38,863 nucleotides of DNA from Micavibrio sp. (GTDB lineage: Bacteria > Pseudomonadota > Alphaproteobacteria > Micavibrionales > Micavibrionaceae): the NCBI GenBank assembly GCA_002687495.1, contig NZAJ01000046.1:1-38863 (forward strand), written 5' to 3'. The position numbers and the translations under genes are program-made. Below the pieces are notes generated by a model. It saw only the letters and a list, made by a program, of their open reading frames with translations, searched no databases and was not told the origin of the DNA. Positions 9,565 through 20,291 of this stretch are shown here, in pieces; the stretch's first letter is position 1; the number at the start of each line of letters is the position of its first letter.

Positions 9565-10968
9565 TCATTTGCTAATAACAAAAACCTGCTCTTTAAGTTC
9601 ATACATATTGAGTGTCTTCATTTTTTTCAGCTGAGATATAACATCTAATACATTTCTTGTATGTTTAAAATTCATCCCGCTGGCCTTAGCCTTCCCATAC
9701 AATAAACTTCCAGCCCTATTTCTGGCGCGCTTAGGAAAATATTTGGCCCATACTGTTTCATTTAGGCTTAATACAAGCTCGTCGATTTTTTTATTTATCT
9801 TTCTTTTTAGTGAGAGAGGAGGAACAGCCAATAACCTTGTAGGCAAAGGCGCAACTAGATCCATTTCTTTTAGAATCGACTCAGCCGACGTGCATTCAGT
9901 ATTTTCGTATACCCACATCTTTAAAACACCGTCGATTACACCTGGTTCTTTAGTTTTCTTTCCACGTACAACATTATCTAAAATTTCGATCAACTCCTCG
10001 CGGCTATTCGCTATTTCTGAGACAGCAAGCGGCTGTTCCAGAGTGTATTTTTTAAGATAATGCGGCATTGGTGGCATATACGTCATAACAGGACGCCCCA
10101 TTAAATGCGCTTCAATACTTGTGGTGCTTTTAAAGTGATATATACCCTCTGATGCTAAAATCCATGGTGTAACAGCCCCCTCATATACAAAATGTAAATT
10201 GTCGAGTTTCTCCTCCATCTTTTTCCAAATATCATGAGATTCAGATGGATGAGGCCTTATTATAAAATTTATATCAGGCTGACTAGCAACCATTTCAGGA
10301 AGAAAATCTATATATTCTTTAAAAGCAATCAAATTTTGCTCAGCTTGACCAACCATAAACTCCACCATATCCTCAGAGAGGTTAGATGCACTATGTTTTT
10401 TTGTTAATTCAAGCCCCATGTGAGCCCCAAGAACATTGTTAGCAATACCAAAGCTCGAAGGGATAAGAATAAAACGCCCATACTTACGTCTCAGCGCATC
10501 CGCCTGATCTTTATAAACCTCATGAGCAAAATCACGCCAGAACTCTAATCTCGGGCTACCGCTTTTCACTCCATACTGGGCAAATTCAGGAAAAGTCTCT
10601 TCAAATATTCTTTTCTGCTCATCACCCCAGAAAAACACACGCTCAATAATGTTTAAATTATCTCTATTAAAGCGAACATTATCCCCTAGAAACTCTTTAA
10701 AAGTAACAACACCTTCTTCATCCAACGAACAGATTTTGTGACCACTTTCATGCAGCATTTTGATTTGCGCATGCTCTAGCGGTGTAGCACTTTTAATCAT
10801 CACCACACCTTGAGGCAGTGTATCAATCATTGCATATAGTATAGCCTTCGGCGCAATTAATACCACCCACCCTTGCATGGCCGCCTCATGCGCTAATGTC
10901 ACTTTTCCATCATGCTCGCGCACCACAATTTCCAGAGGAAGATATAAAAACTTACTGCTATTACTCAC
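9565..10968 (-). CDS. Surface carbohydrate biosynthesis protein, GT-B/CDP-glycerophosphotransferase-like
   Basis: A 467-residue cytoplasmic protein that looks like a 'surface carbohydrate biosynthesis' transferase of GT-B type. NFIIRPHPSES near residue 237 matches the RPHP element of capsule and CDP-glycerol transferases, and STTSIEAHLMGRPVMTYMPP near 284 fits the donor-binding helix. The N-terminus (FLYLPLEIVVREHDGKVTLA) fits such proteins. Donor is unknown; because CMP-nonulosonate genes surround it and no classical sialyltransferase is present, it is a candidate nonulosonate transferase (inference). The start is GTG, preceded by AAGG seven bases upstream, nine bases after the stop of the methyltransferase gene before it. 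Confidence 0.72.
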   Translation of the reverse strand: MSNSSKFLYLPLEIVVREHDGKVTLAHEAAMQGWVVLIAPKAILYAMIDTLPQGVVMIKSATPLEHAQIKMLHESGHKICSLDEEGVVTFKEFLGDNVRFNRDNLNIIERVFFWGDEQKRIFEETFPEFAQYGVKSGSPRLEFWRDFAHEVYKDQADALRRKYGRFILIPSSFGIANNVLGAHMGLELTKKHSASNLSEDMVEFMVGQAEQNLIAFKEYIDFLPEMVASQPDINFIIRPHPSESHDIWKKMEEKLDNLHFVYEGAVTPWILASEGIYHFKSTTSIEAHLMGRPVMTYMPPMPHYLKKYTLEQPLAVSEIANSREELIEILDNVVRGKKTKEPGVIDGVLKMWVYENTECTSAESILKEMDLVAPLPTRLLAVPPLSLKRKINKKIDELVLSLNETVWAKYFPKRARNRAGSLLYGKAKASGMNFKHTRNVLDVISQLKKMKTLNMYELKEQVFVISK

Positions 10969-10977
10969 TTCTTCGCC

Positions 10978-11709
10978 TTACTTCTTTTTATGTTTAAGCT
11001 TATAAAATAGCTGACCTTTATATGGAGACTTAGAAACACCTCCATTTTCATAATTTATAGACAACCGTTCAACCACCATTAAATCTGCTTGTATAAATAG
11101 ATCCTCTATCTCTTGAGGTGTGAACAAATGCCCAAAACCCGGAAAAGTTCTGTCACCAATTTTCCATTCATAGTGGGCATCACCTCTTTTTTCATCAAAT
11201 GCAATACCATCCAGAATTACCCGCCCAAAAACCTTCATCGATCCATAAGCGACTGCGTTATGACGATTATTCACATCCATAATAAACAAGCCGTCCGGCT
11301 TTAGCTTTGACGCTATAGCGCGCAAAGCTAAAACGCGTTTTTCTTTAGAATTTATATGACCAAAAACATTCCAAAGCGCCGTAATGACATCAAATGTACC
11401 AATATCCTGCTCAGCTAACTCCTCCGCAAAAACCTCCAGAACTTTACAGTTTGCTGCTGCACGACATATTTTGGCCATCTCACTACTTGGTTCAACTGCA
11501 ACACACTCTGTTAGGCTCATAGATTTTTGTATTTTAGATAACCTGCGACCATCTCCAGCACCAACATCTAAAACTCGAGCGTCACTAGAAATTTCATTAA
11601 TCACAAGCTCATCTACAGCGTCCAAATATGGAAGTTTGGCATTCGAATAATCTTCATAAACAGGCGCTATTGCATCATAAGCTTCCATTGTATCTGATAT
11701 TTTAGGCAT
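10978..11709 (-). CDS. Class I SAM-dependent methyltransferase
   Basis: A 243-residue methyltransferase. It opens with an EAYDAIAPVYEDYSN segment typical of small-molecule methyltransferases. Motif I is ARVLDVGAGDGRRLSKI, followed by AVEPSSEM (acidic residue for SAM ribose), FDVITALWNVFGHI and LKPDGLFIMDVNNRHN. It sits 12 bases after legF and nine before the GT-B-like gene, so it belongs to the legI-legF operon. A glycan or nonulosonate O- or N-methyl transfer is plausible from context, but the acceptor is not visible in the sequence. Confidence 0.85.
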   Translation of the reverse strand: MPKISDTMEAYDAIAPVYEDYSNAKLPYLDAVDELVINEISSDARVLDVGAGDGRRLSKIQKSMSLTECVAVEPSSEMAKICRAAANCKVLEVFAEELAEQDIGTFDVITALWNVFGHINSKEKRVLALRAIASKLKPDGLFIMDVNNRHNAVAYGSMKVFGRVILDGIAFDEKRGDAHYEWKIGDRTFPGFGHLFTPQEIEDLFIQADLMVVERLSINYENGGVSKSPYKGQLFYKLKHKKK

Positions 11710-11721
11710 AATAATTATGGG

Positions 11722-12426
11722 TCACACTTTTTCAAAAGGATATCTTAACATTAAATCAGCAATGTACAGATCATATTCAGTATCTATATCTACAGATCTT
11801 TCTTCTGGAATCACAATATACCCCAGACGTCCATCTACTAAACGCTCACAGTTTCTAATATAATCAGGGCTTGTTACGTATATACTTCCAGTAATATCGA
11901 ACACTTCTGGCACATCTTGGCGTCGATACGCTTTAGATCCACCTATAACCACCTCGATTTCATCATCAGCATTTATTTTAACCATACTAAGATAAGGACT
12001 TGCAGAGCTTGGGGTAATTGTAAAAACTATATCATTATCCGCTGAAAAAAATTTACGAACAGCACTATCTATGTCTGATGGAGCCCTAAAAGGTGAGGTA
12101 GCTGGCAAGGATATAAACACACCCTGCTGTGAAAAAAGATCATGTTTTTCTTCTAGAGCATGTCGCCACGCCATAATTTCAGGCGTCTGGTCCTGCGCTA
12201 ATTTGCTAGGGCGCATCAATATCTCCGCCCCAAAGCTCGCCGCGACCTCTGCGATTTCAGTATCATCCGTAGACACTAAAACAGACGATATCACCTCACT
12301 TGCCAAGGCACTTTCTATTGAATAAGCAATCAGAGGCTTGCCCGCAACTTCACGTATATTTTTTCTTGCTACCCCTTTCGATCCCCCTCTAGCGAAAATA
12401 CATGCTGTAAGACTTCCCTTCTTCAT
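11722..12426 (-). CDS. legF: CMP-nonulosonate (legionaminate) cytidylyltransferase, NeuA/LegF family
   Basis: Activates a nine-carbon sugar acid with CTP to give the CMP-sugar donor. The N-terminal CTP-binding motif is FARGGSKGVARKNI, followed by PLIAYSIESALAS, VLVSTDDTEIAEVA and PATSPFR. The C-terminal VDIDTEYDLYIADLM carries the metal-binding Asp residues. Length 234 is typical for the family. The legI-like gene overlaps it by four bases (ATGA). NeuA, PseF and LegF cannot be told apart from motifs alone; legionaminate is inferred from the neighbouring legB, legC, legG and ptmE types. Sampled lines here are more AT-rich than legI and legG. Confidence 0.87.
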   Translation of the reverse strand: MKKGSLTACIFARGGSKGVARKNIREVAGKPLIAYSIESALASEVISSVLVSTDDTEIAEVAASFGAEILMRPSKLAQDQTPEIMAWRHALEEKHDLFSQQGVFISLPATSPFRAPSDIDSAVRKFFSADNDIVFTITPSSASPYLSMVKINADDEIEVVIGGSKAYRRQDVPEVFDITGSIYVTSPDYIRNCERLVDGRLGYIVIPEERSVDIDTEYDLYIADLMLRYPFEKV

Positions 12427-13499
12427 CCCCCAAAATCCTTCATTGAAAGCGGTTCATCATGACCTTTATCAACATTAAGCGTTTTACCGATGAGTGTGTC
12501 AAATTCTTCTGGTTTAATCGCTTCTGGGTCATATGGGCGCTTGACGCCAATCACGTGTTTTTCAATCATATCAGCTGTAATCTCAGTGCCCTTTGTCAAA
12601 TTCTCCGCGTTAACATAAAGGCTCTTGCGAATTTTTGGGCGTGTTTCACCTTCTGTCGCGGCTGGCACTTTCACACCGTCCCCCAAGGATGCAGAGGCGT
12701 CACGCACTGCTTTCACAAGCGTTTTAAGCTCTGGGATATCAACGGATGCCTGATGATCAGGGCCAACCATATTCTTATCCAGCGTATAGTGTTTCTCTAC
12801 CATAGCCCCGCCCATACCGGCGCAAACTATAGCCGCGACATGGCCTTTGGTGTGATCAGAATATCCTACCGGCAAATTGAACTGCTCACGCATAGACAAA
12901 ATAACCTTCATATTACATTGCTCAATCGGCGCGGGGTACTGTGATGTACAATGCATGAGCGCAAGCTCGATATCAGGTTTAACCTCACGCACCCAGTTAA
13001 TAGCTTGCGCGACCTCTTCCATGTAGCTTGCGCCGCTAGATATCATCATAGAATCAAAACGCTTGGCCATATATTGAAGGAGCGGCTTATTGCTAATTTC
13101 AGGAGACGGCACTTTCACCGCGCTAACGCCTAACGTATCGGCTAAGAAATCCACGCTTTCATGCTCAAAGGCTGTGCAGAGGAAACCGACGCCCTTTTGC
13201 TTACAATATTCAAACGCTTCAATCAAAAGGTCATCAGGCAGCTCTAAAGCTTTGGCCATTTCAAGCTGGTTTTCAACCATACCTGCTTCGGCCTGATAAT
13301 CCGCGAGCGCTGCATGCGAAGAGATTTCGAGCGCAGTGTTAAAGCGCTGCAGCTTAATAATATCAAGCCCGGCCTCAACACCTTTATCAATGAGCTTAAA
13401 AAGAATTTCGCGATCGCAATTATGATTCACGCCGATCTCGCCAATTACAACGCAGCGATCACCGTCTTTAAAATCAAAACTCTTAGAAACAAAATCCAT
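12423..13499 (-). CDS. legI: Nonulosonic acid synthase, NeuB/LegI family
   Basis: Condenses a 6-deoxy-2,4-diacetamido mannose-type sugar with phosphoenolpyruvate to give the nonulosonic acid. The TIM-barrel part shows EIGVNHNCDRE, IIKLQRFN, MISSGAS, LMHCTSQYPAP, VGYSDHTKG and EKHYTLDKNMVGPDHQAS. The C-terminal SAF (antifreeze-like) domain starts near IRKSLYVNAENL and includes ITADMIEKHVIGVKRP. The frame extends to a GTG at 13505, but GGGGAG at 13507-13512 is seven bases from the ATG at 13499 and only one from the GTG, so the ATG is chosen (358 residues). It overlaps legF by four bases. Confidence 0.92.
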   Translation of the reverse strand: MDFVSKSFDFKDGDRCVVIGEIGVNHNCDREILFKLIDKGVEAGLDIIKLQRFNTALEISSHAALADYQAEAGMVENQLEMAKALELPDDLLIEAFEYCKQKGVGFLCTAFEHESVDFLADTLGVSAVKVPSPEISNKPLLQYMAKRFDSMMISSGASYMEEVAQAINWVREVKPDIELALMHCTSQYPAPIEQCNMKVILSMREQFNLPVGYSDHTKGHVAAIVCAGMGGAMVEKHYTLDKNMVGPDHQASVDIPELKTLVKAVRDASASLGDGVKVPAATEGETRPKIRKSLYVNAENLTKGTEITADMIEKHVIGVKRPYDPEAIKPEEFDTLIGKTLNVDKGHDEPLSMKDFGG

Positions 13500-13506
13500 G
13501 CTCACA

Positions 13507-13512
13507 CTCCCC
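13507..13512 (-). promoter_or_regulatory. Ribosome binding site fixing the legI start
   Basis: GGGGAG on the minus strand ends seven bases before the ATG at 13499. It also includes the last base of the upstream stop codon. It rules against the GTG at 13505. Confidence 0.65.
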
Positions 13513-14588
13513 TATCTATAAAATATTATATTCTGGGTGTTTGGGCTTTCCCCGTAGATATCACGCCATATATCAATTACGCGTCCATAGCCTTCAGAGT
13601 CAATAACCCTCTTACCAATATAATAATCATCCACGCCAATCGCGTTGCTTTTTTTAAAACGGAAGAGCGGATCATCCTCGGCCGTGGTGCGCCCGCCGCC
13701 GACAAGCAGGAACTCAACACCGCTATTCAGCAGCGCTTTGCTCATCTCGCACATAGAGGCGTTGCTTGCGCCGAGCTTCATATATTCAGTTAGCCCCGCG
13801 CCCAAATGATAGAGCGCGCCTTTTTCATGAACCAGCGCCATTGAGGCCGCAACCATCTTATCACCGTCAAAGCTGGCAAAAAGCCGCACGCCGCCCTCGG
13901 GCAGCTTTAGTAAATCATGGTAATATTCATCCGTGTACATAAAGAAATCCGGCGCCTCATTGCGGCGCATAGTCTCATCATACAGAGCGCGGAAAGCAGC
14001 TATATTCTCCGCCAAATCCAGCTCTCTTGCCACCAACCCTTCTTTGCCGGCCTTACGAATCATATTGCGGGTTTTCTTACCCAGCGCGGCAAACAGCTCC
14101 TCTTCCGTTCTCGGCATATGGGTTGTGGCTTGCGGGCGGTTTTTCAGGATTTCAGTATTAGGATGAGCATTTTCTTTCGTGCTTGCATAGATACTGAAAC
14201 GCAGGAATTCGGCGATCACTTTTTCATCTGCACAATACTGCCCAAACGCAGCCCACGCCCTTTGCAGAAACGCCGCGTCTTTCGTTGTTGAAAGCGGGCC
14301 GGAATAGCCATAGATCGCGCTGATATCCTTATAGCCTGTATCATGCTCTTTTCCGTCTTCATCCGTAATAACCGCAGGGGTAAGAAGAAACGGATAAGCG
14401 AAATACTCAGCGCCTTCTTCGAAGCACCACATAAGCGGGGTCGATCCTTTCATACGCTTGGCATAAGTGGTGTGATATTCAGGCGTTTGGCACACATCAA
14501 CGCGCTGGAATTTATCCAGCACCGCGCGCCAATCGTCAATTTTAGATGAATTTATAACTTTACTAATCATGCTCTGATTTTCTAGCAC
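13512..14588 (-). CDS. FemAB/GNAT-like (Acetyltransf_6) protein
   Basis: Predicted acyl- or aminoacyl-transferase with a duplicated GNAT fold. The central FAALGKKTRNMIRKAGKEGL and AAFRALYDETMRRNEAPDFF, then KMVAASMALVHEKGALYHLG and EFLLVGGGRT, are the pattern of FemAB-related and BioF2-like proteins. GTG at 14588 opens the frame; the ATG at 14570 (MISKV) is an alternative start. It is the first gene of the run into legI and legF, 12 bases away from legI. The legionaminate pathway needs an N-acetyltransferase (LegH) that is not otherwise present, so this protein might supply that step (inference). It could equally modify the finished glycan. Confidence 0.75.
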   Translation of the reverse strand: MLENQSMISKVINSSKIDDWRAVLDKFQRVDVCQTPEYHTTYAKRMKGSTPLMWCFEEGAEYFAYPFLLTPAVITDEDGKEHDTGYKDISAIYGYSGPLSTTKDAAFLQRAWAAFGQYCADEKVIAEFLRFSIYASTKENAHPNTEILKNRPQATTHMPRTEEELFAALGKKTRNMIRKAGKEGLVARELDLAENIAAFRALYDETMRRNEAPDFFMYTDEYYHDLLKLPEGGVRLFASFDGDKMVAASMALVHEKGALYHLGAGLTEYMKLGASNASMCEMSKALLNSGVEFLLVGGGRTTAEDDPLFRFKKSNAIGVDDYYIGKRVIDSEGYGRVIDIWRDIYGESPNTQNIIFYR

Positions 14589-14669
14589 ATAGTGTATGTA
14601 TAGGAAAAGTAGTAGACAGCTAAATATTTTACATTATGGCAACTAAAATTCTAACAAGGTATAGTAGAT

Positions 14670-14843
14670 ATGCACGCAGATCCAAAACGCATGAATGAGA
14701 ATATTCCAGAGCATGTCTTACCTAACTTAGAGCGCCATGGCAGCCTTTTGTTAGAAAACCACGCAAAAATGGACGCATTACCTAAAGTGCAAAATACAGC
14801 CCTTACAGCAGCTGTCCCAAAAGCACCGGATGAGCCCTTCTAA
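14670..14843 (+). CDS. Candidate small protein, 57 residues
   Basis: An open frame runs from ATG at 14670 to TAA at 14841-14843. It encodes MHADPKRMNENIPEHV and ends KAPDEPF. An AAGG lies ten bases before the ATG, a plausible ribosome binding site. The product is hydrophilic, Pro- and Ala-rich at its C-terminus, with no membrane segment or Cys; no family was recognised. It sits in the 250-base gap between the FemAB-like gene (divergent) and legG, and its stop overlaps the legG stop by three bases. Real status is uncertain, but it fills almost the whole gap and uses codons like its neighbours. Confidence 0.4.
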   Translation: MHADPKRMNENIPEHVLPNLERHGSLLLENHAKMDALPKVQNTALTAAVPKAPDEPF

Positions 14844-15997
14844 ACTTTAAGCGGATCAACAAAGGTTTTAGAGAGAAGCTTAGCTTTGTCATGCCCAACT
14901 TTGAGCGGACCAAGGATAAGCTCTAGCGCGTTCTCTTGGATATACGGATTTTCTTTACCCTGAATTGAAGCAATGAAGGCTGGGTCTTGGACCTTATCCA
15001 TTGCAGCTTTAATCTCCTCCAGCGCGAAACCGCAATCAACAACATTATTGCCACGTACGCGCCCGCCTTGACGTGAACCCATATTGATCACAGGCAGCGC
15101 GAAGCTCGGCGCCTCCCACAAGCCACTGGATGAGTTGCCGATCATGTATTTAGCCTTATCCATCGCGGCAAAATAGCGCTCAGTACCCAACGCTTCGAAC
15201 ATATAGATATTATCTTTAGCTCCCGCAAAAGCATGCAGCTTTTCAAAGACCGCATTACTACCCGGATCAGGGTTAGGCGCTGTAAGGACAATCGTTTCCT
15301 CGATCTCATCCAATGCCGCGATAAAATGCTCTACCTGCGCTTCGAATGATAGATCGTCATAAGACGTTGGGTGGAACGTCGCAAGCACAAAATCGCCTTG
15401 CGGGATATCAAGCGCGGCATGAATATCAGGCATTTTGTCAGCGAAATCTTGTAGGGATAGCAGCACTGGCTCGCCCGTAGCTGTCACGCGCCAGCTTTCC
15501 TCCCCCATCTTTCTCAAGCGCTCACTATGCTCCTCCAGCGCGGTGAAATGCAGATGAGATAGCGTAGTCAGGACATAGCGGGTCTGATTATCAGCTGAGC
15601 CTTGTGTAATATCACCGCCAGAGTGGTGCGCAATCGGTAAACCGAGCATAGAGGCTGCCGTGGCCACCGCGATCATCTCCCAGCGATCACCAACGATAAA
15701 GACAAAGTCAGGCTGATCTTTAGTGAAAATCTCAACAAACTCCGCCACAGCACGTGCATAGGCCGCCGCGATATCAGCCTCACTATTATCCTCATCTCTT
15801 AGAAAAGCAGGCTGGTAATCAACAGATAAGCCATCGGCCTTTACCGCTTCAATCGTTTTACCGAAACGCGCAAGCAAATGAGAGCCACCTGCGCTCACAA
15901 CCACCTCGATTTCACAGTCTTTTTGCGCAGCAAGGGCAATGGGCCTCGTTGTGGCATAATCTGATCGGCTTAATGTAACGAAATGGACTTTTGGCAT
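14840..15997 (-). CDS. legG: Hydrolysing sugar-nucleotide 2-epimerase, NeuC/LegG family
   Basis: Releases NDP and inverts C2 of an NDP-2,4-diacetamido-6-deoxyglucose to give the sugar used by LegI. The GT-B-like epimerase fold shows VTLSRSDYATTRPI at the N-terminus, IVGDRWEMIAVA, AHHSGGDITQGSADNQTRY, LSHLHFTA, ATFHPTSYDD and IGNSSSGLWEAPSFALPVI. Length 385 fits NeuC. The start codon directly follows the stop of the upstream methyltransferase (TAAATG) and has AAAGG eight bases before it. Its translation may therefore depend on read-through of the phase-variable upstream gene. Sampled lines are about 60% GC, much higher than the flavoprotein gene nearby. Confidence 0.9.
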   Translation of the reverse strand: MPKVHFVTLSRSDYATTRPIALAAQKDCEIEVVVSAGGSHLLARFGKTIEAVKADGLSVDYQPAFLRDEDNSEADIAAAYARAVAEFVEIFTKDQPDFVFIVGDRWEMIAVATAASMLGLPIAHHSGGDITQGSADNQTRYVLTTLSHLHFTALEEHSERLRKMGEESWRVTATGEPVLLSLQDFADKMPDIHAALDIPQGDFVLATFHPTSYDDLSFEAQVEHFIAALDEIEETIVLTAPNPDPGSNAVFEKLHAFAGAKDNIYMFEALGTERYFAAMDKAKYMIGNSSSGLWEAPSFALPVINMGSRQGGRVRGNNVVDCGFALEEIKAAMDKVQDPAFIASIQGKENPYIQENALELILGPLKVGHDKAKLLSKTFVDPLKV

Positions 15998-16693
15998 TTA
16001 AACGCCTTTCGTAAACTGGCAAAGATACTCCTCGATCACGCTACCTGAGTGTCCATCCACGCGTAGTACATTATCAATCGCATCGATCTGAAAATTAGAA
16101 AAAACCCCTCTAATTTCTGCTTCATCAAAGAAGTGCGATACGCCCATATTAGCGCAGGGACCAGTCGGAATTTCATCGTAAGTACCTGGCTCCAATTCAA
16201 TACCTTCGCCATACCCCGTACATTTGCGCCCCCAAAGCTTAGCATAGAAACGACCACCAGGCTTGAGCACGCGATATACTTCAGATAATGTCTTGGCAAT
16301 CACCTCATTGGTATTGGCATAGATGGCGAATATATCAACAACCACATCAAAGCTCCCCCCCCCCCAAGGTAAATCTTTAAAATCGCCAACTTTAAGGTCA
16401 GGCACTATCGGATTAAGGCCTTGATTTTCACTTTCGAGACGCTCGCTCGCTATTTCAATAGCCGCTGGCGATCCATCGATCCCAGACACAGCGTAGCCTT
16501 CACGGTGTAAAAACCATAAATTAGCGCCCGGACCGCATCCAACCTCTAATATCTTTAGAGCTTGCCTATCGCAATTTTTATAATTACGCCCGATGAAACG
16601 CACAAAATCTTCCGGCGGATAACGCCCCCAGCTTTGCGACTTGAACTTGTCATCCCAGTGCTGCTTGTAATCTTGTGTCATTGTTTTCTTCAT
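15998..16693 (-). CDS. Class I SAM methyltransferase with an in-frame poly-G tract (phase-variable candidate)
   Basis: A 231-residue methyltransferase. ILEVGCGPGANLWFLHREG is motif I, AVSGIDGSPAAIEIA binds the SAM ribose, and VYRVLKPGGRFYAKLWG follows motif III. Where relatives have a residue run like DLPFxDxSFD, this protein has DLPWGGGSFD, encoded by TGG and three GGG codons (11 consecutive G, 16355-16365). With 11 G the frame is open. With 10 G translation would stop after about 130 residues, with 12 G after about 115. It starts within the 3' end of the flavoprotein gene (44-base overlap; a second ATG is at 16681) and abuts legG. Confidence 0.88.
   Translation of the reverse strand: MKKTMTQDYKQHWDDKFKSQSWGRYPPEDFVRFIGRNYKNCDRQALKILEVGCGPGANLWFLHREGYAVSGIDGSPAAIEIASERLESENQGLNPIVPDLKVGDFKDLPWGGGSFDVVVDIFAIYANTNEVIAKTLSEVYRVLKPGGRFYAKLWGRKCTGYGEGIELEPGTYDEIPTGPCANMGVSHFFDEAEIRGVFSNFQIDAIDNVLRVDGHSGSVIEEYLCQFTKGV
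16355..16365 (-). repeat. Homopolymeric tract of 11 G (coding strand), slipped-strand contingency site
   Basis: Eleven consecutive C on the plus strand, read as G11 in the methyltransferase gene at codons 110-113. It is the longest G/C homopolymer I found in the window; the next, of seven, is at the 3' end of legC. Mononucleotide G tracts of this length are prone to slipped-strand mispairing and drive phase variation of surface-glycan genes in Campylobacter and other bacteria. Confidence 0.9.
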
Positions 16694-18035
16694 CTAATAG
16701 CTCTGTGAGTTTTAGTGATTCATTATAAATTGTACGTCTAAAGAATGGCCTTACATCGCGCAGCAAAACGCGTGATGAGTATTTTGGAAGCTCCTCATAA
16801 AACTCATCCACACGCTCTTGGTAACCAATTTTAGGTGGTTTAAATGTCGAGGGGATTCTTACGATTTCATAGTCATGAAGCTCCGCATTTGAAGCCACCA
16901 CACCCAAATCTTTCATTTCTTTCCACAAATCATCTATAATAGATTCAGGCTTTTCCCAATCTTCGCTACCAATAACCGCTGGACACTCACATGTAATAAA
17001 AGAATGCCCCTGCTCATTTACTTGCCCACTATAAAGTCCAGCTGAAGCACTTCTAAATGTTAAGCGTTCAAGATTAAAATTCTGCACGTAAGTAAAATCT
17101 TTGATCTTATCAACATCTGTAATCATCGTAGCAAATAGCATTGGAGTGCCGTACTGATATGACTTTATATCAAACTCAAACCCAAGAGCAGATGCCAACC
17201 CTTCAATGTTATCATTGGCCCATATAACCTGATCCACTTCATAAGTGCCCTTATCAGTATGAACCTCAACACTATTATCCTTATCTTTTATAGAAATAAT
17301 TTTTTCACCTAAAGATATTTTAGCACCTTTCTTTTCTAGCCATGGCACAGCTCGATCACACCATCCTTTCATGGCCTTTCCATCACTGGGATACAACGAA
17401 ACCAAGTCATCCAAAGGCGCCATCGATTTTCTTCTAGCGGCTAAAACTGTATCCAGCCATGGATCTTTTTTCAGCTCAACCATTTCTGCATCATCTAAGA
17501 ATTTCAGACGGTGCAACGACGTCACCGACATACCTGAAGGTTCTATTTCCTCAGGGCTGATACTGTATGTCTTTTCAAAAATTTGAGAAAAAATAGCGCC
17601 CGCAGTATCTCCGAATTTCGTATAGAATACTTCTTTCAAGTTTTGTGCCTGGTCTTCTTTTGAGCCTTCTTTAGCAATTTGCAAAAGCTCTCGTTTAATC
17701 TGCTCTTTTGTACTTTCATTCAAAGACGATAAATCAGGCAATGAAAAACCTTCAGTTACCTGACCGTTAAAAGCGCTTGCAGAAACAAACTCAATCTCTT
17801 TTGTTTGGCCATCCATAATCTCATTTACAATCTCCCCCAAATCCTTAGGGATCGAGTCAAAAACGTGTACACCCTTATCGACATAAAACCCCTTCACCTC
17901 GCGCGAATAAGCTATGCCCCCAAAAAATGGAGCTGACTCAATTATATGCACTTCATTCTCAGGATTTTTCAGCAATTCCAGTGCATCACAAAATCCACGA
18001 AATCCAGCGCCTGATATAATATATTTTTTTCCCAT
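16650..18035 (-). CDS. FAD-dependent oxidoreductase of amine-oxidase/mutase type
   Basis: A 461-residue flavoprotein. The N-terminal dinucleotide-binding motif is ISGAGFRGFCDALELL (GAGFRG at 9-14) with E33 at the end of strand 2, followed by PFFGGIAYSREV, as in protoporphyrinogen-oxidase, phytoene-desaturase and UDP-galactopyranose-mutase-like proteins. A middle substrate domain contains EKTYSISPEEIEPSGMSV. QVIWANDNIEGLASALG closes the FAD half. It has AAGGAAA a few bases before the ATG. The reaction is unknown; sugar oxidation or isomerisation is possible from context. Sampled lines are strongly AT-rich compared with legG. Confidence 0.8.
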   Translation of the reverse strand: MGKKYIISGAGFRGFCDALELLKNPENEVHIIESAPFFGGIAYSREVKGFYVDKGVHVFDSIPKDLGEIVNEIMDGQTKEIEFVSASAFNGQVTEGFSLPDLSSLNESTKEQIKRELLQIAKEGSKEDQAQNLKEVFYTKFGDTAGAIFSQIFEKTYSISPEEIEPSGMSVTSLHRLKFLDDAEMVELKKDPWLDTVLAARRKSMAPLDDLVSLYPSDGKAMKGWCDRAVPWLEKKGAKISLGEKIISIKDKDNSVEVHTDKGTYEVDQVIWANDNIEGLASALGFEFDIKSYQYGTPMLFATMITDVDKIKDFTYVQNFNLERLTFRSASAGLYSGQVNEQGHSFITCECPAVIGSEDWEKPESIIDDLWKEMKDLGVVASNAELHDYEIVRIPSTFKPPKIGYQERVDEFYEELPKYSSRVLLRDVRPFFRRTIYNESLKLTELLDEENNDTRLQAALG

Positions 18036-18114: not shown

Positions 18115-19281
18115 TTACTTTAGAGCCCCCCCGAGTTTTACGCTCGATGGGATAGAGATAACAGTGCGCTCTAATTTTTCAGCGCATGATAGATCCATAT
18201 GCGGGCAGCTTTTATACATGTCTAATTCATGCATAAGCTTCCACAGAGGTCTACTCATATAGCCTGCGTCATTTAGTGCCTTTAGTATTTGATCACGATC
18301 AAGACCATCTTCAATTCTAATTGCGCAAAGCCAGTAATTACTTCTCGTCCCTTCTGGCTCGCGGACAAACTCAACGCCATTAAGTCCTTCAAAAGCAAGC
18401 TTATAACGCTCGGCCAGATCCCGCTTCGCTTTCAAGAATGCATCAAGTTGCTCTAGCTGCGCGCAGCCCAGCGCGGCGTTAATATTCGGCATACGGTAAT
18501 TATAGCCAATCTCATCATGGATAAACTCCCATGGATGAGGCTGCTTTGCTGTTGTCGTCAAGTGCTTAGCGCGTTTAGCTAGCTCAGCATCATTGGTGAG
18601 GATTGCGCCACCACCGCCTGTCGTCATGATTTTGTTACCGTTAAAAGATAGCGTTGAAATAAGGCCAAAAGCCTCCACGGGCTTATCATGATAAAGGCTG
18701 CCCAGACTTTCCGCGCAATCTGCAATAATTGGCAGATCATATTTTTGCGCTAGAGCTTCAAGCCCATTCATGTCCACTGGATGCCCCAGAGTATGCATCG
18801 GGACGAGCGCAGCAATACGGCGCCCAGTTAGCTTATTATAAGAGCCGTCATCTTTTACGTCTATTATTGCGGATAAATAGCTATCCAGCTTAGGCACATC
18901 AACACCCAATGACTGCTCTTCGCTATCAATAAAATGCGGGATCGCGCCGATATAGCTAATGGCGTTAGCCGTCGCTATAAAGGTTAAGGCCGGGCATAAC
19001 ACTTCTTCATCGCGCTTTACGCCAGCAAGCATAAGAGCAATATGAAGAGCGGCCGTGCCATTGACAGTAGGAATTGCATATTTCACGCCACAGCGCTTTG
19101 CAAGATCATCCGAGAAACGATCAACATACGCACCGACAGAGGACACCCACCCTGTATCGATACAGTCTTTTAAATATTCATTTTCACGGCCCTGAAATAA
19201 TGGCTCATGCAGCGCTATGAAGTCGTCTTTGTCACCCAAAACGGTTTTTACGGCTTCTACGATTTGGCTGACATTGCTCAT
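18115..19281 (-). CDS. legC: PLP-dependent sugar aminotransferase, LegC-like (DegT/DnrJ/EryC1/StrS)
   Basis: Transfers an amino group, usually from glutamate, to C4 of an NDP-4-keto-6-deoxy-HexNAc. Family landmarks: GTAALHIAL, CPALTFIATANAI, the PLP-ring Asp in IIADCAESLGS, and the Schiff-base lysine K217 in SFNGNKIMTTGGGG. The LegC-type N-terminus (ALHEPLFQGRENEYLKDCIDTGWVSSVG) is characteristic. 388 residues is normal. Its start shares one base with the legB stop (TAATG), so the dehydratase and aminotransferase are coupled. A seven-G run at 18126-18132 lies at the very 3' end, where slippage would alter only the last few residues. Confidence 0.92.
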   Translation of the reverse strand: MSNVSQIVEAVKTVLGDKDDFIALHEPLFQGRENEYLKDCIDTGWVSSVGAYVDRFSDDLAKRCGVKYAIPTVNGTAALHIALMLAGVKRDEEVLCPALTFIATANAISYIGAIPHFIDSEEQSLGVDVPKLDSYLSAIIDVKDDGSYNKLTGRRIAALVPMHTLGHPVDMNGLEALAQKYDLPIIADCAESLGSLYHDKPVEAFGLISTLSFNGNKIMTTGGGGAILTNDAELAKRAKHLTTTAKQPHPWEFIHDEIGYNYRMPNINAALGCAQLEQLDAFLKAKRDLAERYKLAFEGLNGVEFVREPEGTRSNYWLCAIRIEDGLDRDQILKALNDAGYMSRPLWKLMHELDMYKSCPHMDLSCAEKLERTVISIPSSVKLGGALK

Positions 19282-20291
19282 TAGATATTATAGCGATCCG
19301 TTTTATATAGTTTGAGATTCTCTGGGTTCTGGAACCATTTCGCCGTTTCTTCTATCCCGCGTTTAAAGCCGTCTAGCCCACCATATTCTGGTGCCCAGTC
19401 AAAGAGTGCGTCGGCTTTTTCAGTATCGGCAAGCAAGCGCTCCACCTCGCTTTTATCTGGGCGCAGACGCTGTTCATCACAAACAATCTCAATTTCCGCG
19501 CCCATAACATCGGCGATCAGCTCTGCGAGGTCACCGATAGAAATTTCAAAATTTGAACCTACATTAACAGTTTGCCCAATAAGAGCATCACATTCCATTG
19601 CTGCTATAAAGCCTTTTGCGGTGTCTTTCACAAATGTGAAATCGCGCGTTGGAGTTAGAGAGCCAAGTTTAATTGTCCGCTCACCGCTCGCGATCTGACC
19701 GATAATCGTTGGAATAACAGCGCGCGCAGATTGACGTGGGCCATAAGTATTAAACGGCCTTAAAATCGTTACTGGCGTTTCAAAGGCGTTATAGAATGAC
19801 ATCGCGATAGCATCTGCACCAATTTTTGTAGCACTATAAGGGGATTGTGGCTGAAGCGGATGCTCTTCAGTAATCGGCGCAAATTGCGCTGTGCCATAAA
19901 CCTCAGAGGTTGAAGTACACACAACTTTGGAAACACCTAACTCTTTGGCGGCCTGCACAACATTGAGCGTACCTTTAATGTTGGTGTCCACATAGGTGTC
20001 AGGTGAGTGATAAGAGTATGGAATAGCGATTAATGCTGCTAGATGCAGAACAGCTTCACAGCCCTGCATTGCGTTTTTAACGCCATAAGGATCACGAATA
20101 TCACCTGAGAAAATATCCAAGCTATTCTGAATATCTTTAGGTGCGTGATCAAGCCAGCCCCAGCTTCCAAAGGAGTTATAATATGTGAAGGCACGCACAT
20201 CATACCCTTCACGCACGAGCGCTTCAGTGAGGTGAGAACCAATAAACCCATCAGAGCCGGTAACAAGTATTTTGCCTTTAGTCTTTGTCAT
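19281..20291 (-). CDS. legB: NDP-HexNAc 4,6-dehydratase, LegB-like extended SDR
   Basis: Converts NDP-GlcNAc (GDP-linked in Campylobacter) to the 4-keto-6-deoxy sugar, the first committed legionaminate step. NAD-binding TGSDGFIGSH sits at 11-20, STSEVYG at 127-133 holds the catalytic Ser/Thr, and the catalytic Y152-K156 pair is in SPYSATK. RAFTYYNSFGSWGWLDH near 33-49 is typical of the LegB branch rather than of RmlB or PseB. ILRPFNTYGPRQSARAVIP and PTRDFTFVKDTAKGF complete the substrate side. Length 336 is normal. It is followed immediately by legC. Confidence 0.92.
   Translation of the reverse strand: MTKTKGKILVTGSDGFIGSHLTEALVREGYDVRAFTYYNSFGSWGWLDHAPKDIQNSLDIFSGDIRDPYGVKNAMQGCEAVLHLAALIAIPYSYHSPDTYVDTNIKGTLNVVQAAKELGVSKVVCTSTSEVYGTAQFAPITEEHPLQPQSPYSATKIGADAIAMSFYNAFETPVTILRPFNTYGPRQSARAVIPTIIGQIASGERTIKLGSLTPTRDFTFVKDTAKGFIAAMECDALIGQTVNVGSNFEISIGDLAELIADVMGAEIEIVCDEQRLRPDKSEVERLLADTEKADALFDWAPEYGGLDGFKRGIEETAKWFQNPENLKLYKTDRYNI

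What the first reader, a model, noticed from the sequence alone, without database searches (positions are those of the whole stretch)
16355..16365. Poly-G(11) contingency tract switches a methyltransferase in a nonulosonic acid locus
The sequence shows 11 consecutive G in frame within codons 110-113 of the methyltransferase, right where the conserved motif II/post-II region begins. I translated the variants: 10 G gives a stop at about residue 130, and 12 G at about residue 115, both losing the end of the SAM fold. In Campylobacter, poly-G tracts of this kind phase-vary flagellar and LOS glycan genes. Finding one inside a Leg locus in an apparent alphaproteobacterium suggests switching of a surface methyl group, to evade phage or grazers.
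Basis: partly seen in the sequence, partly recalled or inferred. Interest (0 to 1): 0.85.

Follow-up and report, generated by a model that had tools for sequence, protein, structure and literature searches.

The report
G-run in a sugar methyltransferase gene
A run of eleven identical DNA letters sits inside a methyltransferase gene of a sugar-coat locus and could slip to break the gene, but nothing shows that it is an evolved on/off switch, and such runs turn up elsewhere in related bacteria, even in a housekeeping gene.

Summary
Observation confirmed: C11 at 16355-16365 is G11 in codons 110-113 of a 231-aa class I methyltransferase; ten G ends the frame after residue 130, twelve after 115. 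The locus is legionaminic-type: LegB, LegC and NeuC/LegG pass curated cut-offs, and the methyltransferase lies next to LegG in four other genomes.

An evolved switch is plausible but not shown. One run >=11 in this genome has a chance of about 0.13-0.20. In the family 34 of 104 genomes (this one included) have G>=11 runs; of 55 read, 22 lie outside ORFs, 15 at gaps or contig ends, 10 as poly-C and 8 as poly-G in ORFs, one of these in an aroK-aroB fusion. The window has no other G/C run of 8 or more. None of ten homologues has the tract. MutS and MutL are encoded. Length variation between cells could not be tested.

Most likely a lineage-specific, slippage-prone run, in frame in the assembly, that can inactivate an accessory gene. 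Evolved phase variation remains possible (about 0.25).

The parts
16355..16365 (-). G11 tract (C11 on +), codons 110-113 (W110-G111-G112-G113)
15998..16693 (-). MT1, class I SAM methyltransferase, 231 aa, holds the tract
   Evidence: Pfam Methyltransf_25 1.8e-19, Methyltransf_11 3.6e-18; homologues next to LegG
14840..15997 (-). NeuC/LegG-type UDP-sugar 2-epimerase; its ATG follows the MT1 stop codon directly
   Evidence: TIGR03568 350.4 bits, cut-off 235.9; junction TTTAAATG
16650..18035 (-). FAD/NAD(P)-binding amine-oxidase-like protein, overlaps the start of MT1
   Evidence: upstream of MT1 in L014, L015, L017
18115..19281 (-). LegC aminotransferase
   Evidence: TIGR04181 518.7 bits, cut-off 420
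19281..20291 (-). LegB 4,6-dehydratase
   Evidence: TIGR04180 522.5 bits, cut-off 475
13512..14588 (-). FemAB/GNAT-type acyltransferase
   Evidence: PF13480, PF02388
12423..13505 (-). NeuB-family synthase (LegI by position)
   Evidence: PF03102 5.5e-79; TIGR03569 322.9 bits, below its cut-off 399.65
11722..12426 (-). CMP-nonulosonate cytidylyltransferase (LegF by position)
   Evidence: PF02348; TIGR03584 151.8 bits, below its cut-off 205.7
10978..11709 (-). MT2, second methyltransferase of the locus
   Evidence: PF13489; homologues in L014, L015, L016, L017
8339..9445 (-). CBS + nucleotidyltransferase protein (PtmE-like, name recalled)
   Evidence: sugar nucleotidyltransferase models, below their cut-offs; homologue beside the locus in L015, partial one in L128

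Best explanation
A lineage-specific G11 run lies in loop codons of an accessory methyltransferase of a legionaminic-acid-type locus and is in the ON frame in the assembled genome. Replication slippage by one base would give a truncated protein (130 or 115 residues) without the C-terminal half of the SAM fold, and might lower translation of the directly abutting LegG. The run most likely arose by ordinary mutation and is a mutation-prone site (an 'accidental' tract), not a switch shaped by selection. Shown: sequence, frame effects, locus identity, absence from ten homologues. Inferred: slippage, loss of function, polarity, origin.
For: Frame effects. Homologues have non-repetitive codons at the site (TGG GAT GAT GAG AGC in the 65-67% ortholog of the same family); 10 of 10 distinct homologues lack the run, and all but one (L096, one residue shorter) keep the residue count. 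The run-length spectrum gives P about 0.16 for one run >=11. G>=11 in 34 of 104 family genomes, own included; of 55 of 56 runs read, 22 outside ORFs >=100 aa, 15 at gaps/contig ends, 10 poly-C in an ORF, 8 poly-G in an ORF. A G11 encodes Gly-Gly-Gly in an aroK-aroB fusion of 567 aa. One isolated tract in the glycan locus. MutS (828-aa frame at a contig start) and MutL (637 aa), both over cut-off. The review PMC11868660 (section 6 read) does not count such tracts as phase variation unless reversible high-rate switching is shown.
Against: Three runs >=10 in the genome where 0.67 are expected (P about 0.03) and three GGG codons in a row (P about 0.007) hint at something beyond chance. The tract is in a glycan-locus gene, a usual target of phase variation. 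In Bifidobacterium breve a coding G11 is highly slippery (PMC9187656, passages). My ORF classes use the present frame, so a gene that is now out of frame at its tract would be counted as 'outside ORFs'; this hides possible switches.
Confidence: 0.6

Rival explanations
1. Evolved contingency locus: G11 phase-varies the methyltransferase, switching a methyl group on a surface nonulosonic acid, or through translational coupling with LegG tuning the whole sugar.
For: Longest G/C run of the genome, in frame, in a glycan-locus gene. SAM methyltransferases with G tracts of 7-10 are listed as phase-variable in Campylobacter fetus in PMC6321876 (passages). The LegG ATG abuts the MT1 stop. The residues it encodes differ from those of the ten homologues. 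Genes now out of frame at a tract would escape my ORF count.
Against: No second G/C run >=8 in the window; Campylobacter jejuni has ten in one flagellin glycosylation locus (PMC3068675, passages), and 77% of poly-G/C tracts >=7 of the genus lie in ORFs (PMC6321876, passages), against 18 of 55 runs >=11 here, or 18 of 40 away from gaps, some of these ORFs probably spurious (a different length cut-off). The 12.7-kb orthologous stretch of the same family has no run above 7. MutS/MutL present. No population data.
Confidence: 0.25
2. Wrong tract length: the consensus of the draft genome does not give the real length, or mixes cells.
For: The genome is a 94-contig, 90.5% complete draft; 15 of 55 family runs sit at gaps or contig ends; annotated G-tract lengths can be off (PMC9187656, passages).
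Against: 11 is one of the lengths that keep the frame (8, 11, 14), and W-x-x-x-[SQ]-F-D has exactly three residues there in L014, L015 and L017.
Confidence: 0.1
3. Run grown by a T->G hotspot 3' of G runs (GnT motif), for example from GGT glycine codons, with no selection on length.
For: Hotspot described in PMC12344412 (abstract and passages); it would turn GGT codons silently into GGG. In the own-genome stretches held, T follows G runs of 5 less often (5 of 31) than runs of 4 (50 of 153).
Against: In the family stretches T shows no loss with run length (0.23 to 0.29 for lengths 3 to 6; a sample chosen for G>=11 runs); the nearest homologues have Asp, not Gly, codons.
Confidence: 0.05

Closest known systems
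Poly-G phase-variable genes of Campylobacter (flagellin glycosylation, LOS, SAM methyltransferases)
   Same: G run of similar length inside the ORF of a glycan-locus enzyme; slips of one base truncate it (PMC6321876 and PMC3068675 passages)
   Different: One isolated tract; none in ten homologues; in this family 37 of 55 G>=11 runs read are outside ORFs or at gaps; MutS/MutL present; no length variation shown
C. jejuni PtmH (Cj1325) / L. pneumophila ORF8, N-methyltransferases of legionaminic acid
   Same: SAM methyltransferase encoded in a legionaminic acid locus (PMC3766260 section 10; PMC13306086 passages)
   Different: No sequence comparison with PtmH or ORF8 was made; no WbuX-type amidotransferase (PtmG-like, name recalled) is found in the window, so the group that PtmH methylates may be lacking; substrate of MT1 unknown
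B. breve pilus G10/G11 tracts
   Same: Coding G11 (PMC9187656 passages)
   Different: There the tract is measured to slip; here it is not

Membership tests
SSR-mediated phase-variable (contingency) locus | Repeat in a single gene whose length sets the reading frame | tested here: met
SSR-mediated phase-variable (contingency) locus | Length polymorphism among cells or strains | not testable with these tools
   no reads and no second genome of the species were at hand; ten homologues lack the tract
SSR-mediated phase-variable (contingency) locus | Reversible switching above about 1e-5 without selection (PMC11868660 section 6) | not testable with these tools
   needs culture or deep sequencing
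SSR-mediated phase-variable (contingency) locus | Tracts in excess of chance / several tracts in surface loci | tested here: inconclusive
   weak excess of runs >=10 (P 0.03), not of >=11 (P 0.16); no clustering in the window
Legionaminic acid biosynthesis locus | LegB, LegC, LegG, LegI, LegF set | tested here: met
   LegB, LegC and NeuC/LegG over curated cut-offs; NeuB- and PseF-type matches strong but below the cut-offs of those Neu/Pse models
Legionaminic acid biosynthesis locus | LegH (NeuD-type) acetyltransferase | tested here: inconclusive
   a FemAB/GNAT-type protein sits in the operon; not all window ORFs were scanned
PtmH-type N-methyltransferase | Sequence kinship to PtmH and an amidinated substrate pathway | tested here: inconclusive
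   kinship not compared; of the pathway only a WbuX-type amidotransferase was sought, and none is in the window at E<=1; the rest of the genome was not searched for it

The most novel reading that the evidence does not exclude
A slippage switch in a family of small-genome, probably alphaproteobacterial species controls not just one methyl group but, through the abutting MT1 stop and LegG start, the output of a whole nonulosonic acid pathway; similar G11 runs in DotA- and DotG-like genes of relatives would make poly-G switching a habit of the family.
Probability: 0.12. Interest if true: 0.6.

Novelty: new member of a known kind. Interest (0 to 1): 0.3.

Why it matters
If it switches, it would be a contingency locus outside the pathogens in which these are mostly studied (recalled), on a sugar that phages or predators could recognise. 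As it stands it mainly warns that a long G run in a glycan gene is not by itself evidence of phase variation: the same run occurs in a shikimate-pathway gene of the same family.

Tried and rejected
Orthologs in the genus: 0 of 6 same-genus genomes match MT1 except for a weak 33% match in G002 (E 3.2e-18), which does not reach 1e-25. LegG at E<=1e-40: 4 of 93 relatives, 31-34% identity; that sample did not include G136, the family member that does carry the locus. Class search: 4 of 384 others, 33-36%. Order search: 2 of 141 others, 67% (G136) and 48% (G110); the G136 gene is the one in L014 (400 bases compared, identical). Viral contigs: 30 pattern matches, no relative. AlphaFold model of MT1: mean pLDDT 62.7, so not used for fold searches. 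Solved structures: 45 sequences at E<=0.001, best 1.1e-9, general methyltransferases; no substrate clue. GnT hotspot: mixed, weak. Promoter/terminator scan: counts below the shuffled means, not used. Literature: searches for homopolymer phase variation in Alphaproteobacteria, and for metagenomes and nonulosonic acids, were seen as listings; I saw no direct precedent in them, which is not proof of absence. PMC2831843 was seen as abstract and outline only.

Dropped or doubtful before counts: 1 of 56 listed G>=11 places (G032 C21, at a contig start) was not fetched; the other 55 lie in 50 loci, all read. L104's ORF looks spurious but is counted among the 8 poly-G ORFs; some poly-C ORFs, for example the two of L093 near a G-rich contig end, may be spurious too.

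Full report
What is there. On the - strand the methyltransferase MT1 (15998-16693, 231 aa) contains G11 in codons 110-113, TGG GGG GGG GGG AGC. A modest AlphaFold model (mean pLDDT 62.7; it starts at residue 2) places these residues, 109-112 of the model, in a loop before the strand 114-121 of the model. The truncated forms would lack most or all of the fold from there on.

Where it sits. LegB, LegC and a NeuC/LegG epimerase pass NCBIfam cut-offs; NeuB-family and PseF-type proteins, a FemAB/GNAT protein, a second methyltransferase and an FAD protein complete a tight - strand gene row. This supports a legionaminic-acid-type locus; the exact sugar is not shown. MT1 belongs to it: the order FAD protein, MT1, LegG, GNAT, LegI, LegF, MT2 is kept in L014 and L015, each with one extra ORF inside; L017 has MT2, FAD, MT1, LegG on one strand and GNAT, LegI, LegF inverted beside them; L016 has LegG, MT1, GNAT, LegI, MT2. 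L014 lies in the same family as the window (its gene is found again as G136). Within the genus the locus is accessory: 0 of 6 same-genus genomes have an MT1 ortholog, only one weak 33% match.

Is the tract conserved? Not in what was found. In ten distinct homologues (L125 is the same gene as L014 and is counted once) the site reads WDDES, WDDGQ, WPDNS, YPDEF, YAEGT, WPTSS, YPSDR, YESGY, SDDQE, or in L096 a form one residue shorter, with no run. The tract is thus special to this lineage. This fits both a young switch and an accident.

Is it more than chance? The genome's G/C run spectrum is 121, 29, 6, 2, 2, 1 for lengths 6 to 11. Extrapolation predicts 2.6 runs >=9, 0.67 >=10 and 0.17 >=11; seen 5, 3 and 1 (P 0.13, 0.03, 0.16). 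The other runs >=9 lie in a fliH-like ORF (C9), between flhA- and flhF-like genes (C10), between trxA- and infC-like genes (G10), and in an intergenic stretch (C9); these gene names are my reading of the ORFs, not a family search. G>=9 runs occur in 78 of 94 genomes, own included. In the family, 34 of 104 genomes, own included, have runs >=11, 56 places. I read 55: 22 outside ORFs >=100 aa, 15 at gaps or contig ends, 10 as poly-C and 8 as poly-G in an ORF; genes now out of frame at a tract would fall in the first class. The poly-G cases are MT1 itself, an aroK-aroB fusion, a DotA/TraY-family gene (over its subfamily cut-off), a DotG/IcmE-like gene (below the cut-off), a beta-helix protein, and three unassigned or doubtful ORFs (L070, L083, L104). 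A run in aroB shows that a G11 can sit in a gene that a free-living cell can presumably ill afford to switch off.

Mechanism. A G11 run is expected to slip more than unique sequence; this follows from established knowledge and from B. breve (passages). MutS and MutL are encoded, which should lower the rate compared with Campylobacter (that Campylobacter lacks them is recalled). A slip would remove MT1 function and, because the LegG ATG follows the MT1 stop directly, could lower LegG by loss of coupling; both are inferred. Whether cells in nature carry mixed lengths cannot be told here. By the criteria of PMC11868660 (section 6) this is at present a mutation-prone tract and not a demonstrated phase-variable gene.

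What MT1 methylates. PtmH and Legionella ORF8 are reported to N-methylate an acetimidoyl group of legionaminic acid (PMC3766260 section 10). L015 and L017 carry a WbuX-type amidotransferase over cut-off, but the window has none at E<=1 and L014 only a 19-residue chance match. So the PtmH analogy is a lead only.

Verdict. Observation confirmed; interpretation partly supported; ordinary unless reads show mixed lengths.

Noticed in passing
window 10978-18035; L014-L017: A conserved module of an FAD amine-oxidase-like protein, two methyltransferases and a FemAB/GNAT protein accompanies LegG/LegI/LegF in four other genomes titled as different groups; its product is unknown and may be an unusual nonulosonic acid.
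   Followed up: partly
L089 (DotA/TraY), L117 (DotG/IcmE-like), L083 (weak TraC match): Three of the eight poly-G-in-ORF runs of the family lie in genes that resemble type IVB secretion or conjugation parts, L083 only weakly; L117 also has a C11 in the same ORF.
   Followed up: partly
G000 C6:21542-21551 (L009 13543-13552): C10, with a C7 about 40 bases on, between flhA-like and flhF-like genes; a possible expression-level tract for flagellar genes.
   Followed up: no
G032 and G051 (family survey): Very many G>=9 runs in G032 (25 + 20), and runs up to 35 at contig ends or N gaps in G051; at least the latter are probably assembly artefacts.
   Followed up: no
window 9565-10968: Surface carbohydrate biosynthesis protein (TIGR04396, over cut-off) beside the Leg genes.
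   Followed up: no
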